DNA of 64,000 nt, from assembly GCF_026240635.1 (NCBI RefSeq), contig NZ_CP110848.1:808501-872500 (forward strand), given 5' to 3'. The notes below the pieces were generated by a model that ran no database searches, was not told the origin of the DNA, and saw only the letters and a list, made by a program, of their open reading frames with translations. Position numbers and translations under genes: made by a program. This DNA comes from Trichothermofontia sichuanensis B231. Lineage in GTDB: Bacteria > Cyanobacteriota > Cyanobacteriia > B231. How positions within the stretch are numbered: the first letter of the stretch is position 1; each line of letters opens with the position of its first letter. Of this stretch, positions 33,972 to 40,575 are shown in pieces.

Positions 33972-36815
33972 CTAGGTCGGAGCGTCTGTGGGGGAGACTG
34001 TCAAGGTCAGCACGGGGGTGAAACGTCCGTTCTCGCCATACACCCAGGCGATCGCGTCAGGGTCTCGGCTTTGGGTCCATTGCGAGAAGTTGGGCTGCTT
34101 TTTTATGCGATTGATCGTGCGGCGGGTGGTATTTAGGCGGCGAGCAAGACCACTACTGGAGAGGGACAGATCACTATCGCCGACTTCCTCCAGGATAGCC
34201 TCGTAGGTCTGCCAAATGATGATAAACAGGGCCAACAGAAACACGATGACGATTTCAGGCCGTAGGATCCACTCGCTTTTTTCCTCTGTTGCTTCCGCCT
34301 CGCTCTCAGCCGTTGGTTGAACTGGCGGCTGGGCGATCGCCAACGGTGGACCGAAGGTTGCCTCTGGACTGGCTGTGGGTGTAACATCCTCGCGTTCTGC
34401 TTGCCAAGCCTCGGGGGGGGTATTGAGGGCACTGTGTAGTTCGAGCGCCTGTCCTTCCAGTTCCATCGCTTCGCCGCGATCGGCAGCCGGTGATGAGCAC
34501 TCTGTGGTTTGACGAGCATCCACTGCTGATGTGGCCATCAGACCGGTCAGCAAGGGGGCGGCTCCTGATAGGCTGGTTACTCCCTGGGGCGCTGCAACCT
34601 CTGGATCGGTCAATTGGTCCTCAATGGCTGGTTCTGTAGTGGCCAAATCTTCTTCTTGGTCAGCCTCCACCTCAGTAGCCAGTAAGACCGTTGCTAAGTC
34701 ATCTGGTGCTTGATCGCCCCCAATCTCCCCAGTCAAATCCTCATCGGTCAGATTTGCATCAGTTAGCTCCTCAGCAGTCAGGCTGGTGAGTTGCAGCGGT
34801 GAGCTTTCTAGTTCTGGAGTGTCCTCCAAATCTTCGCTACCTAAGTCTCCAGTACCTAAGTCTTCAACACCTAGTGCTTCAGCATAGTCTTGAGCACCTA
34901 AATCTTTAATGTCTGACACTTCAGCGTATGCTTGGGTATCTAAGCCTTCAGTATCTAGGTCTTCAATGTCTGAATCTTCAGCGTATGCATCAGTGGCTGA
35001 AGCTTCAACGTCTGAATCTTCAGTATCTAAGTCTTCAGTATCTAGGCCTTCAATGTCTGAATCTTCAGCGTATGCATCAGTGGCTGAAGCTTCAATGTCT
35101 GAATCTTCAGTGTCTAGGTCTTCGACGTCTAGGTCTTCAATGTCTGACGTTTCAGTGCATGTATCAGTATCTAAATCTTCAACGTCTGAATCTTCAATAT
35201 CTAAATCTTCAGTATCTAGATCTTCAACCTCTAGGTCTTCAATGTCTGACGTTTCAGTGCATGCATCAGTATCTAAATCTTCAACGTCTGAATCTTCAGT
35301 GTCTAAATCTTCAACACCTAAGTCTTCAATATCTGATGCTTCAGCGTATACATCAATATCTGAACTTTCAACGTCTGAACCTTCAGTGTCTAGGTCTTCA
35401 ATGTTTGGCTCTTCAGCGTATGCTTCAGGCTCTAAATCTTCAATGCCTAAGTCTTCAATGTCTGATTCAATGCCTAAGTCTTCAATGTCTGAACCTTCTG
35501 TGTCTAAATCTTCAACACCTAAGTCTTGAATGTCTGATGCTTCAGCGTATGCATCAATATCTGAATCTTCAGTATCTGAACTTTCAACGTCTGAACCTTC
35601 AGTGTCTAGGTCTTCAATGTTTGGCTCTTCAGCGTATGCTTCAGGCCCTAAATCTTCAATGCCTAAGTCTTCAATGTCTGAACCTTCTGTGTCTAAATCT
35701 TCAACACCTAAGTCTTGAATGTCTGATGCTTCAGCGTATGCATCAATATCTGAATCTTCAGTATCTGAACTTTCAACGTCTGAACCTTCAGTGTCTAGGT
35801 CTTCAATGTTTGGCTCTTCAGCGTATGCTTCAGGCCCTAAATCTTCAATGCCTAAGTCTTCAATGTCTGAACCTTCTGTGCCTAAATCTTCAATGCCTAG
35901 GTCTTCAAGGTCTGACGCTTCAGTGTATACTTCAGGCCCTAAATCTTGAGCGCCTAAGTCTTCAACATCGGATTGTTCAATGCTGCTGCCTGGTTCTGTT
36001 GCTTCTGATTCCTGAGCTTCGTGGGAGAACGTCCCAAGTAGTGTCTCACTGTTCCCCCCCCGCTCTAGCTCTAAACCCTCCTGTTCGCGAACGTCAGTAA
36101 ATTTATTGACCAACGAATGGGCTACCTCGCCGGCAAAGGTTTGTCCCTCTTCCGATACCTCCTCATCTGGCAAGGTCTGTCCCTTGGTAAACTCTGAGGT
36201 GATCGCAACTGATTCTGGTTCCTGACTGTCGCGATCGGGCATCTCGCTAACGTCTGCCGTAGTCCCTCCTGCAACTGCTTCTACACCGGCTGTAACCCCT
36301 GCCGTGATGGCTACTTCAAGTTCTGGATCACGGTCCGAAGTCGGTACGGCTGAGTCTGGTCCCTGATTTTCCAGCTCATGGGTAACGTCAACATCTTTGG
36401 CGATCGCGTCTAGCTCGGCGGCTGGGCACGCTTGCGCCTGCGGCTTGGCAAGATCGGTCGTAACGGGTTCCGCCTGGAGGGGCGGTTCTGGAGCTGCGGG
36501 TGGCTGCAAATAGGGAGCCAACGCCAGATTCTCAACCCAATCGGCAAAGCGTTGTCCCCGGCGGCGACCCCAAATGCGGACAGTGTGCGCAGCAGCGATC
36601 GTTAACGGCTGAAGTTGTGCCAGAAAACTCCGAATCAGCGCCACTGCTCGCCGTTGGTCAGGGGTCGACTCTGCTTCCAAGAGGATCTGGAGGCAATTGT
36701 CATGTATCCGTACCTTGATTACCCAGCTTGGTTCCGGATTTTGCATCTTAAAGACGGCTTCGAGTGCCTGTGGATTACCCTGTTGTGCCAGTGGCCAGAG
36801 GTCTGCGAATGGCAT
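33972..36815 (-). CDS. Acidic-repeat protein with C-terminal membrane helix and HTH
   Basis: A 947-residue protein of unrecognised overall family. Residues 1-~105 form a folded domain (CLQILLEAESTPDQRRAV...VRIWGRRRGQRFADWVENL) like an unnamed module found at the start of other cyanobacterial proteins. A very acidic, low-complexity centre (about residues 270-640) follows, made of five-residue units such as D-I-E-D-L and larger 63-residue repeats. A single hydrophobic helix (EIVIVFLLALFIIIWQTY) lies near residue 855. It precedes a C-terminal ~70 residues with a helix-turn-helix-like pattern: SSSGLARRLNTTRRTINRIK, then W-x-x-x-x-D-P-D-A-I-A-W. The ATG at 36815 has GGAGGG 10 bases upstream, so it is preferred to TTG 36833. 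No signal peptide is visible. The function is unknown. Confidence 0.8.
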   Translation of the reverse strand: MPFADLWPLAQQGNPQALEAVFKMQNPEPSWVIKVRIHDNCLQILLEAESTPDQRRAVALIRSFLAQLQPLTIAAAHTVRIWGRRRGQRFADWVENLALAPYLQPPAAPEPPLQAEPVTTDLAKPQAQACPAAELDAIAKDVDVTHELENQGPDSAVPTSDRDPELEVAITAGVTAGVEAVAGGTTADVSEMPDRDSQEPESVAITSEFTKGQTLPDEEVSEEGQTFAGEVAHSLVNKFTDVREQEGLELERGGNSETLLGTFSHEAQESEATEPGSSIEQSDVEDLGAQDLGPEVYTEASDLEDLGIEDLGTEGSDIEDLGIEDLGPEAYAEEPNIEDLDTEGSDVESSDTEDSDIDAYAEASDIQDLGVEDLDTEGSDIEDLGIEDLGPEAYAEEPNIEDLDTEGSDVESSDTEDSDIDAYAEASDIQDLGVEDLDTEGSDIEDLGIESDIEDLGIEDLEPEAYAEEPNIEDLDTEGSDVESSDIDVYAEASDIEDLGVEDLDTEDSDVEDLDTDACTETSDIEDLEVEDLDTEDLDIEDSDVEDLDTDTCTETSDIEDLDVEDLDTEDSDIEASATDAYAEDSDIEGLDTEDLDTEDSDVEASATDAYAEDSDIEDLDTEGLDTQAYAEVSDIKDLGAQDYAEALGVEDLGTGDLGSEDLEDTPELESSPLQLTSLTAEELTDANLTDEDLTGEIGGDQAPDDLATVLLATEVEADQEEDLATTEPAIEDQLTDPEVAAPQGVTSLSGAAPLLTGLMATSAVDARQTTECSSPAADRGEAMELEGQALELHSALNTPPEAWQAEREDVTPTASPEATFGPPLAIAQPPVQPTAESEAEATEEKSEWILRPEIVIVFLLALFIIIWQTYEAILEEVGDSDLSLSSSGLARRLNTTRRTINRIKKQPNFSQWTQSRDPDAIAWVYGENGRFTPVLTLTVSPTDAPT
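35329..35907 (-). repeat. Three near-identical ~189-bp tandem repeats inside the acidic-repeat gene
   Basis: Units at about 35329-35529, 35530-35718 and 35719-35907. The last two are identical over roughly 165 bp before diverging after ACCTTCTGTG. The first carries a small extra segment. Each encodes about 63 residues, and all repeats stay in frame. More diverged 15-bp units continue down to about 34840. Confidence 0.85.
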
Positions 36816-38946: not shown

Positions 38947-40575
38947 TCAGAGGGCCGCCCCCTGCTCTAGATAGGTGGCAATGGTCTGAATTCCCTGACG
39001 CAATTCCCGTTCTCCTTTGCCGGTTTGATCCACGATTGTCACAATGTAGAGGTTTCCCTGAAGCTTCAAGGCAAGGGTGGTCCCCAACGTGGCGGCAGTA
39101 CGTCCCGTTTTTTCCCCCACCCAAAGGCCGGGATTAGCAGCGAGGGCACGGATACCTAACTCCCGATCTTGCTGATTGGCCAGAGCCTGTCGCACAACCT
39201 GATGACCAGGGGAATCTCCCTGATAGATCTGTTGCATCATCCGGCTTAGCTCGTCGCTAGTCAAGGTATTTGCCTGACGACCCGGATTAGCAGGCATCCA
39301 GGATTGGCCCATCAGCTTAAAGTTCACCCGAGTGAACCGATAGCCCGCCTGCTGAAGGGATTGGTTAATCCTATCCCAGCCCAAATAATCGATGAGCTGA
39401 TTCGTCGCAATGTTGCTGCTGTGGCTCAGCATTTGTGAGAGCAATACTTGCAGCGGATAGGTTTTCCCCACTTGAATCTCTGCCGGATCTTCAGTGAAAT
39501 TTCCCGGTGTTACCCTAATGGGGGTGCCTAAGCTCACCGTGCCCTGTTGCAGTTGCTGGAGAACCGCGATCGCCACCGGGATTTTAATCAAACTCGCTGG
39601 ACTGACCACGATCGCATTCCCGCCATAGTGGCGACATTCGCCGCTCACCCGACACACTGTAATGCGCGTCTGGGGAGATAATTGGGCTTGGGCCGCGATC
39701 GTCCGCAGAAAGCCTGACTGCAAAAGTTCACTCCGATACCGGGCCACATCCAGGTTATGGCGATATTCCTCATATTTCCGCAGGACCTGTTGCCGACGCT
39801 TCGACTCCGCTGGGATCTGGCGCAGATGGGCCAGCGCACTTTGCCAATAGGTCTTGGCACGATACCACGTGCTCAGGGTAGGCTGACGGAGATTGCCCAA
39901 CATGGCCGCCTGGCTCGCAAAGTGGATTGCTTGCTGCCATTGCTGAGTTGCCCAGACCTCCGCTTGTACCTGTAACTCCAGCGTAGCCAGCGCCTGAATC
40001 CGTCCCACCACATCGCCGGTCCTAACGGTTGACGTGTCCGATGGCTGCAATACCAAGCTCGTTAGCCAGGTTTGTCCCTGCTCCAGCAGTTCGGCCTGCA
40101 GGCGCGATCGTTGCTGCTCAAAACGGCGTAATTGAACTGGATCGAGCCTCACGGCTGAGTCGAGAGGCGGAGTCACCTGGACTAACGGGCGATCGGGAGG
40201 ACGGGGATGGGCAGCCTGCCGTCTGCGTGCTGTATCTGGACAGGGAAACGGCTGGTCCTTCATGCTCACCCCTGTTGGCGCCAAGTGTGGGCAGGGAAAA
40301 CGACTTGAAACGTGCCGTCTTTGTGCACCAAACTGGGTTGCCAGGATGGCATCGGATGGCAGGGAGTGGACGGAGCGCGATCGCGGCTCTGGAGTGGTCG
40401 CAGGCCGGGGGATAGCCACCAAAACCCAAACGCCTAAAGCGTGACCTACGATAAAAACCACCCAGGGACCATATCCGTTGAACGGTCTACGCCTTGGCCC
40501 GATCAGCTCACGATGCCCAGGGTATCCTCTGCCCCAGGCAAAACGATACCCAAGCCAGCGAAGCCACCCTTTCAT
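38947..40575 (-). CDS. Class A beta-lactamase-fold serine hydrolase
   Basis: A 542-residue protein. The N-terminal ~250 residues are Arg/Pro-rich, with one hydrophobic segment (WVVFIVGHALGVWVLVAI near 40-57) and a helical linker. The C-terminal ~270 residues have the active-site motifs of class A beta-lactamase and PBP-like enzymes in order: SxxK as SLIK, SxN in SHSSNIATNQLI, and KTG in VGEKTGRTAA. It may be a peptidoglycan-active enzyme or a lactamase-like hydrolase. Cyanobacteria often have several such proteins, and resistance should not be assumed. It is probably membrane-anchored and periplasmic. Confidence 0.85.
   Translation of the reverse strand: MKGWLRWLGYRFAWGRGYPGHRELIGPRRRPFNGYGPWVVFIVGHALGVWVLVAIPRPATTPEPRSRSVHSLPSDAILATQFGAQRRHVSSRFPCPHLAPTGVSMKDQPFPCPDTARRRQAAHPRPPDRPLVQVTPPLDSAVRLDPVQLRRFEQQRSRLQAELLEQGQTWLTSLVLQPSDTSTVRTGDVVGRIQALATLELQVQAEVWATQQWQQAIHFASQAAMLGNLRQPTLSTWYRAKTYWQSALAHLRQIPAESKRRQQVLRKYEEYRHNLDVARYRSELLQSGFLRTIAAQAQLSPQTRITVCRVSGECRHYGGNAIVVSPASLIKIPVAIAVLQQLQQGTVSLGTPIRVTPGNFTEDPAEIQVGKTYPLQVLLSQMLSHSSNIATNQLIDYLGWDRINQSLQQAGYRFTRVNFKLMGQSWMPANPGRQANTLTSDELSRMMQQIYQGDSPGHQVVRQALANQQDRELGIRALAANPGLWVGEKTGRTAATLGTTLALKLQGNLYIVTIVDQTGKGERELRQGIQTIATYLEQGAAL

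What the first reader, a model, noticed from the sequence alone, without database searches (positions are those of the whole stretch)
33972..36815. Acidic-repeat protein ending in a membrane helix followed by a helix-turn-helix
The layout is rare: a small folded N-domain, then several hundred residues of Asp/Glu-rich five-residue units, a single transmembrane helix near residue 855, and a C-terminal ~70-residue HTH-like domain (SGLARRLNTTRRTINRIK with D-P-D-A-I-A-W). No signal peptide is present. A membrane-anchored HTH could tether DNA or a regulator to the thylakoid or plasma membrane, or the HTH-like part may bind another protein. The acidic region could bind cations or basic proteins. It lies between a Cache histidine kinase and thf1, both envelope/thylakoid-linked.
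Basis: partly seen in the sequence, partly recalled or inferred. Interest (0 to 1): 0.65.

Follow-up and report, generated by a model that had tools for sequence, protein, structure and literature searches.

The report
Membrane-anchored helix-turn-helix protein, acidic arm
A cyanobacterial gene encodes an undescribed type of membrane protein, with a small head domain, a long acidic flexible arm, one membrane helix and a DNA-binding-type domain at the tail; the type is conserved in dozens of cyanobacteria, but on which side of the membrane the tail sits is an open question, because the sequence clues contradict each other.

Summary
In detail: a 947-residue protein on the MINUS strand (36815→33972; the finding gave no strand). 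Parts: N-domain (1-100), acidic arm (101-852, net charge -229, a ~400-residue period-5 array), one strongly hydrophobic helix (853-872), and a C-terminal winged-HTH-like domain (886-936) modelled with good confidence.

The layout is not unique. 46 other cyanobacterial genomes carry the same membrane helix plus HTH, and 40 of these also have the N-domain. The arm is almost always acidic but ranges from 46 to 1,534 residues, so the repeat array is a local expansion of a spacer. Neither end has a Pfam or NCBIfam family. The HTH module also sits on two-TM proteins, HMA_2 P-type ATPases, response regulators and ribbon-helix-helix proteins. The neighbouring histidine kinase and thf1 are not conserved neighbours.

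A conflict remains. The N-domain has no export signal and K/R lie only on the N side of the membrane helix, which puts the HTH outside the cytoplasm. Yet its recognition helix is more basic than in relatives whose HTH must be cytoplasmic. I lean to a membrane-tethered, cytoplasmic, DNA-binding HTH (0.4); an extracytoplasmic HTH-fold domain is a serious rival (0.35). Topology fusions would decide.

The parts
36516..36815 (-). N-domain, residues 1-100; undescribed cyanobacterial domain (predicted helix-helix-strand-strand-helix-strand-strand)
   Evidence: Profile hits in 34 of 39 related genomes, up to 10 copies each; 9 matching stretches in the own genome, this one included; AF2 pLDDT 82; no Pfam or NCBIfam family
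34260..36515 (-). Acidic, probably disordered arm, residues 101-852, net charge about -229
   Evidence: Composition and linker statistics
34716..35975 (-). Period-5 acidic repeat array (DIEDL/DTEGS/DVEDL-type units; higher-order 29-residue unit), about residues 281-700
   Evidence: Autocorrelation against shuffles; tandem repeats with periods that are multiples of 3 bp
34200..34259 (-). Single hydrophobic (membrane) helix, residues 853-872, with family-invariant P-E at its start and W..Y at its end
   Evidence: Family alignments; hydrophobicity; AF2 helix 853-879
34008..34160 (-). C-terminal HTH-like domain with a beta hairpin, residues 886-936 (LARRLNTTRRTINRIKK ... W ... DPDAIAW ... F.P)
   Evidence: Profile conserved in 186 of 390 genomes of the class; AF2; weak HTH Pfam hits
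33972..36815 (-). Whole gene, 947 aa plus stop

Best explanation
This is a member of an undescribed cyanobacterial family of membrane-anchored HTH proteins. Shown by sequence: the order N-domain, acidic arm, one hydrophobic helix, HTH-like domain. Inferred: the N-domain is a cytoplasmic docking head; the arm is a flexible, charge-repelling spacer that keeps the head away from the membrane and from DNA and whose length drifts by repeat expansion; the hydrophobic helix fixes the protein to the thylakoid or plasma membrane; and the HTH, held within about 20 residues of the membrane surface, contacts DNA through its very basic second helix, so that the protein acts as a tether or local regulator that brings a DNA site to the membrane. 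For both ends to be cytoplasmic the short hydrophobic helix must lie in the membrane without the usual single crossing, or the charge signal must be overridden. That step is not shown and is the weak point.
For: The order N-domain, arm, helix, HTH is kept in 41 of 47 helix+HTH proteins at linker lengths from 46 to 1,534 residues, so it is a maintained architecture and not a chance fusion. The helix itself carries invariant P-E and W..Y positions, so it is more than grease. Five proteins of one genus keep only helix+HTH (100-140 aa), which makes that pair the minimal unit. The HTH core is modelled at pLDDT above 90, and many of the Foldseek hits, though weak, are DNA-binding HTH proteins (BldC, RacA, Xis of Tn916, MarR, IdeR). 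The second-helix region holds 4.66 K/R per 16 residues, against 3.26 in relatives on other proteins; loss of DNA contact would be expected to erode this. The same module elsewhere sits on proteins where it must be cytoplasmic: response regulators, ribbon-helix-helix proteins, the C-terminus of P-type ATPases, and two-TM proteins. There too it is mostly attached to membrane proteins, about 40 of 56.
Against: Within 10 residues of the helix, K/R are on the N side in 46 of 47 proteins (the remaining one is a tie) and almost absent on the HTH side (mean 1.85 against 0.04). In the two-TM relatives, whose HTH is cytoplasmic, the flank after the last helix has 2.8 K/R per 15 residues, against 0.45 here. 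By the positive-inside rule, and by negative-outside enrichment (PMC5525207), the HTH would be outside. The N-domain has no signal peptide and in paralogs looks cytoplasmic, so with one crossing the C-terminus must be outside. No Foldseek hit is significant (best E 0.75). DNA binding is untested.
Confidence: 0.4

Rival explanations
1. The membrane helix is an ordinary N-in/C-out anchor. The N-domain and acidic arm are cytoplasmic and the HTH-fold domain is exported to the periplasm or thylakoid lumen, where its basic face binds something other than the chromosome (a protein, anionic lipid or wall polymer, or incoming DNA).
For: Flank charges in 46 of 47 family members and the contrast with the two-TM HTH relatives. 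N-domain proteins with an acidic arm ending in a single tail helix exist without any HTH (L231, L232), which fits a cytoplasmic N-domain plus arm. Single-TM N-domain paralogs carry TPR-like or DUF1574-like parts after the helix. The short forms (100-140 aa) look like plain signal-anchor proteins.
Against: All other carriers of this HTH module place it in the cytoplasm, and the recognition helix is more basic here, not eroded. Beyond 30 residues the K/R balance reverses in favour of the C-tail. Single-TM N-domain paralogs themselves show only a weak N-side charge bias (8 more, 3 equal, 4 less).
Confidence: 0.35
2. The HTH module is a cytoplasmic protein-binding or membrane-surface-binding adaptor, not a DNA binder, shared by several cyanobacterial membrane proteins to recruit a common partner.
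For: Strong preference for membrane proteins (about 40 of 56 carriers) and a conserved W / DP[DE]G.W.Y motif outside the putative recognition helix, which could be a docking site. Winged helices that bind proteins appear among the weak Foldseek hits (ESCRT-II).
Against: Also fused to response regulators and ribbon-helix-helix proteins, which are typical DNA-binding company. Basic second helix.
Confidence: 0.15
3. N-out/C-in: the acidic arm and N-domain are exported and the HTH is cytoplasmic, a mirror image of ToxR/CadC.
For: Would satisfy the HTH chemistry; the total C-tail K/R exceeds the N side beyond 30 residues.
Against: No signal peptide. It would require translocating up to about 1,700 N-terminal residues, and the K/R flank is on the wrong side. 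The N-domain occurs on soluble pentapeptide proteins without an export signal.
Confidence: 0.03
4. Artefact: the repeat region is non-coding or a frameshifted fusion of two genes.
For: Repetitive DNA, and long ORFs on the opposite strand.
Against: Both ends are conserved in one frame and the same order occurs in dozens of genomes. Repeat periods are multiples of 3. The opposite-strand ORFs are the mirror of the in-frame repeat.
Confidence: 0.01

Closest known systems
ToxR/CadC-type membrane-integrated one-component regulators (e.g. PMC5430869, PMC6320335)
   Same: A DNA-binding-type winged HTH and a single membrane helix in one polypeptide; works like a membrane-tethered DNA binder if the HTH is cytoplasmic.
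   Different: There the HTH is N-terminal and cytoplasmic and the sensor is periplasmic; here the HTH follows the membrane helix at the C-terminus, the N-terminal part has no export signal, and no sequence relation was found.
RodZ-type membrane-anchored HTH proteins (own knowledge)
   Same: An HTH fold used next to a single membrane helix, with protein-binding rather than DNA-binding use known.
   Different: N-terminal HTH, periplasmic C-terminus; no similarity seen here.
Cyanobacterial two-TM + wHTH + acidic arm + C-terminal HTH proteins (e.g. L046, L195, L207, L216; unnamed)
   Same: Same C-terminal HTH module, membrane anchoring, acidic variable arm, and a W[QD].Y-like motif at the end of the last membrane helix.
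   Different: A hairpin of two helices puts the HTH in the cytoplasm; no N-domain; the arm lies between the membrane and the HTH.
MerR/excisionase-like HTH domains (BldC, RacA, Tn916 Xis)
   Same: Helix-turn-helix plus hairpin order in the AF2 model; among the best, though non-significant, Foldseek hits.
   Different: No significant sequence or fold score; the conserved W / DP[DE]G.W motif was not compared with these families.

Membership tests
Family proposed here: N-domain + acidic arm + TM + C-terminal HTH | N-domain at the N-terminus | tested here: met
   Own profile E 2.2e-33 (the target is a seed member); 33% identity to G005's protein, BLAST E 6e-11
Family proposed here: N-domain + acidic arm + TM + C-terminal HTH | Acidic low-complexity arm between the N-domain and the membrane helix | tested here: met
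   753 residues, 32% D+E, net -229
Family proposed here: N-domain + acidic arm + TM + C-terminal HTH | RPE...W[QD].Y membrane helix followed within about 20 residues by the HTH with W/DP[DE]..W | tested here: met
   Alignments A1 and A4
ToxR/CadC-type regulators | N-terminal winged HTH followed by one TM and a periplasmic sensor | tested here: not met
   The HTH is C-terminal to the TM
ToxR/CadC-type regulators | HTH in the cytoplasm and binding DNA | tested here: inconclusive
   Flank charges say outside, HTH chemistry says cytoplasm; DNA binding not testable here
Known HTH Pfam families (HTH_11, HTH_24, HTH_Crp_2, MarR_2) | Score above the curated cut-off | tested here: not met
   Target hits: HTH_Crp_2 16.2 bits against 27, HTH_11 15 against 25; family members reach E about 1e-4 at best
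Known HTH fold (structural) | Significant fold match to a solved HTH structure | tested here: inconclusive
   Confident model, but best Foldseek E 0.75; many top hits are HTH/winged-helix DNA binders
KH or ring-building-motif domain (for the N-domain) | Significant fold match | tested here: inconclusive
   Best hits E 0.09-0.7 include ribosomal S3 KH domains, FliF/SpoIIIAH/PrgK ring domains and unrelated enzymes

The most novel reading that the evidence does not exclude
A winged-HTH domain of DNA-binding type, shared with cytoplasmic proteins of the same bacteria, has been moved to the periplasmic or thylakoid-lumen side of the membrane in a whole cyanobacterial family, keeping and even strengthening its basic face for a new ligand.
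Probability: 0.33. Interest if true: 0.72.

Novelty: new variant of a known kind. Interest (0 to 1): 0.42.

Why it matters
It defines two undescribed cyanobacterial domains, an N-terminal head in most genomes sampled and a C-terminal HTH in about half of the class. It also shows that the HTH is attached mainly to membrane proteins, which hints at a membrane-linked way of touching DNA or a partner that has not been studied in these organisms. The topology conflict is sharp and cheap to test: either a membrane-tethered DNA-binding family, or a rare case of an HTH fold working outside the cytoplasm.

Tried and rejected
Gene neighbourhood: no conserved neighbour across 20 family loci. thf1 and the Cache kinase are next to the gene only here. 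A weak kinase/TPR/WD40 cluster came from common repeat domains; an M50 peptidase-TPR gene is adjacent only in L038 and L100, two similar loci, so a proteolytic-release link is not supported.

Viral and plasmid origin: no relative of the helix+HTH in viral contigs or plasmids. Outside the class, one borderline hit.

Known families: Pfam and NCBIfam give nothing above cut-off for either end. The NCBIfam DdfA hit to the N-domain (15.9 bits against a cut-off of 70) is far below threshold and taken as chance. PDB sequence search: only weak HipB-type HTH for the C-end and designed proteins for the N-end.

Fold search of the N-domain: KH-like and ring-building-like hits are all non-significant, so no function is claimed.

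First genome-contig query with a nine-row alignment failed for lack of conserved columns; a closer alignment gave ten named loci.

HTH tree: short and poorly resolved. Helix+HTH forms and other carriers mostly separate, but the number of origins is not settled.

Literature: no paper found that describes this family (one search; the library is incomplete).

Full report
OBSERVATION. The gene is on the minus strand, ATG at 36815 and stop ending at 33972, 947 residues; a TTG six codons upstream is possible, but the ATG aligns with the start of homologs. Residues 1-100 are a compact domain; residues 101-852 are an arm with 32% D+E and 2% K+R; the part from about 281 to 700 has a period of five residues (identity 0.34 against 0.12 in shuffles, z 14.7) and a higher-order period of 29 (z 18.2), seen in the DNA as repeats whose periods are all multiples of three. 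Residues 853-872 are strongly hydrophobic. Residues 886-936 carry the HTH-like sequence.

FAMILY. A search of 59 relatives found the C-terminal stretch in 24 genomes. Nine other genomes match over the hydrophobic helix as well, and there the protein has the same order: N-domain, arm, helix, HTH (the N-domain of the L038 protein is divergent and that of the L041 protein is cut off by a contig end). A profile search of 390 genomes of the class gave a clearly two-part result: 186 genomes have the HTH, of which 47 (this one included) match helix plus HTH at E below 2e-26, and the rest match the HTH alone. I extracted the 47 proteins: 41 have the N-domain (E below 1e-10), five from one genus are short forms of 100-140 residues with only helix and HTH, and one is truncated. 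Named members come from Oculatella, Leptolyngbya and other Leptolyngbyaceae. The arm is 46 to 1,534 residues long with median 102, net negative in 40 of 41. The repeat array in the window is therefore a local expansion of a spacer. G005, G055 and G002 have long acidic arms of their own.

THE ENDS. Neither end belongs to a Pfam or NCBIfam family. The N-domain occurs in 34 of 39 related genomes with up to ten copies, at the N-terminus of many different proteins: pentapeptide-repeat proteins, single-TM proteins with TPR-like tails, DUF1574-like proteins, two-TM proteins with zinc ribbons, an M50B-like membrane protein, and proteins that are just N-domain, acidic arm and a tail helix (several of these names are read from the sequence, not from a database hit). 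Its model (pLDDT 82) has only non-significant matches to KH and ring-building domains. The C-terminal model is confident (pLDDT above 90 through the HTH): helix, turn, helix, third helix, hairpin. Foldseek finds no significant match, but many of the best hits are HTH or winged-helix DNA binders. All nine seed members match HTH_11 weakly.

OTHER CARRIERS OF THE HTH. Among 56 HTH-only proteins read, about half are proteins with an N-terminal pair of membrane helices, mostly with a winged helix, often an acidic arm and the HTH at the end; 11 are P-type ATPases; about 7 are HMA_2-domain proteins; 3 are response regulators; 5 are ribbon-helix-helix or coiled-coil proteins (the 15 that the pattern rules left as 'other' were sorted by eye). 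In these the HTH must be cytoplasmic.

TOPOLOGY CONFLICT. Three ordinary expectations cannot all be true: an N-domain without a signal peptide is cytoplasmic; a strongly hydrophobic 15-20-residue helix crosses the membrane once; a basic HTH is cytoplasmic. In the family, K/R within 10 residues of the helix are on the N side in 46 of 47 proteins (mean 1.85 against 0.04), and in 41 of 47 within 15 residues, never the reverse. As a control, the two-TM HTH proteins have 2.8 K/R in the 15 residues that follow their last helix, against 0.45 here. This favours an exported HTH (positive-inside rule; for the acidic side see PMC5525207, read as title and abstract only). Single-TM N-domain paralogs, a second control, show only a weak bias (8 more, 3 equal, 4 less). 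Against export, the second-helix region holds 4.66 K/R per 16 residues here, against 3.26 in the cytoplasmic carriers, with the same conserved positions, and beyond 30 residues the C-tail has more K/R than the N side. I could not resolve this with the tools at hand.

MECHANISM. Most likely (0.4): a membrane-tethered DNA-contacting HTH with a cytoplasmic head on a long acidic arm. The arm's charge should repel DNA and membrane and act as a spacer; the head would dock to a partner. Shown: the order of parts and its conservation, the predicted HTH fold, the membrane helix by hydrophobicity. Inferred: DNA binding, side of the membrane, role of the head. Serious rival (0.35): an exported HTH-fold domain. 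Lesser rivals: cytoplasmic adaptor (0.15) and inverted topology (0.03).

CONTEXT. thf1 lies 97 bp upstream on the same strand and the Cache kinase 281 bp downstream on the same strand. No sigma-70-like promoter and no terminator-like site was found in the gap, so co-transcription with thf1 is possible here, but the neighbourhood is not conserved.

NOVELTY. Membrane-anchored HTH proteins are a known kind (ToxR/CadC: PMC5430869, PMC6320335). This one has the reverse order and no sequence relation was found, so it is a new variant. If the HTH is truly outside the cytoplasm it would deserve more.

Noticed in passing
L051, L188, L189, L190, L219, L221, L222, L223, L224, L225, L230: The same C-terminal HTH module is fused to the end of large HMA_2-domain P-type ATPases (830-1,030 aa); HMA_2-only small proteins (L192, L193, L199) also carry it. 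They may be related to ferrosome-type ATPases, which was not tested.
   Followed up: partly
L045, L046, L049, L050, L194-L198, L200-L205, L207, L208, L211-L214, L216, L217, L228: A widespread unnamed cyanobacterial protein: N-terminal hairpin of two membrane helices, a winged helix, an acidic or repetitive arm and the HTH at the C-terminus.
   Followed up: partly
L059:3787-4950 (own genome, G000:C1 about 1336590): An N-domain paralog joined to a multi-TM part with HEFGH (weak Peptidase_M50B match).
   Followed up: partly
L060:3992-7660 (own genome, G000:C1 about 345000): Several N-domain copies in tandem, a TM and a large C-terminal part that looks like a DUF1574/SGNH-type protein (no Pfam hit at 0.01).
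   Followed up: no
L231:1231-4728, L232:2065-5730: N-domain proteins of about 1,200 aa with a long acidic array and a single tail membrane helix but no HTH.
   Followed up: partly
window 34928-36100 (+) and 34909-35529 (+): Opposite-strand ORFs of 390 and 206 aa over the repeat are mirrors of the in-frame repeat and should not be annotated as genes.
   Followed up: yes
L237:2519-4867 (G014:C11): A family member whose HTH is lost after the membrane helix, apparently by a frame change; the TM motif is intact.
   Followed up: no
window 38947-40575 (-): A Beta-lactamase2/transpeptidase-like domain behind a long, unusual N-terminal extension.
   Followed up: no
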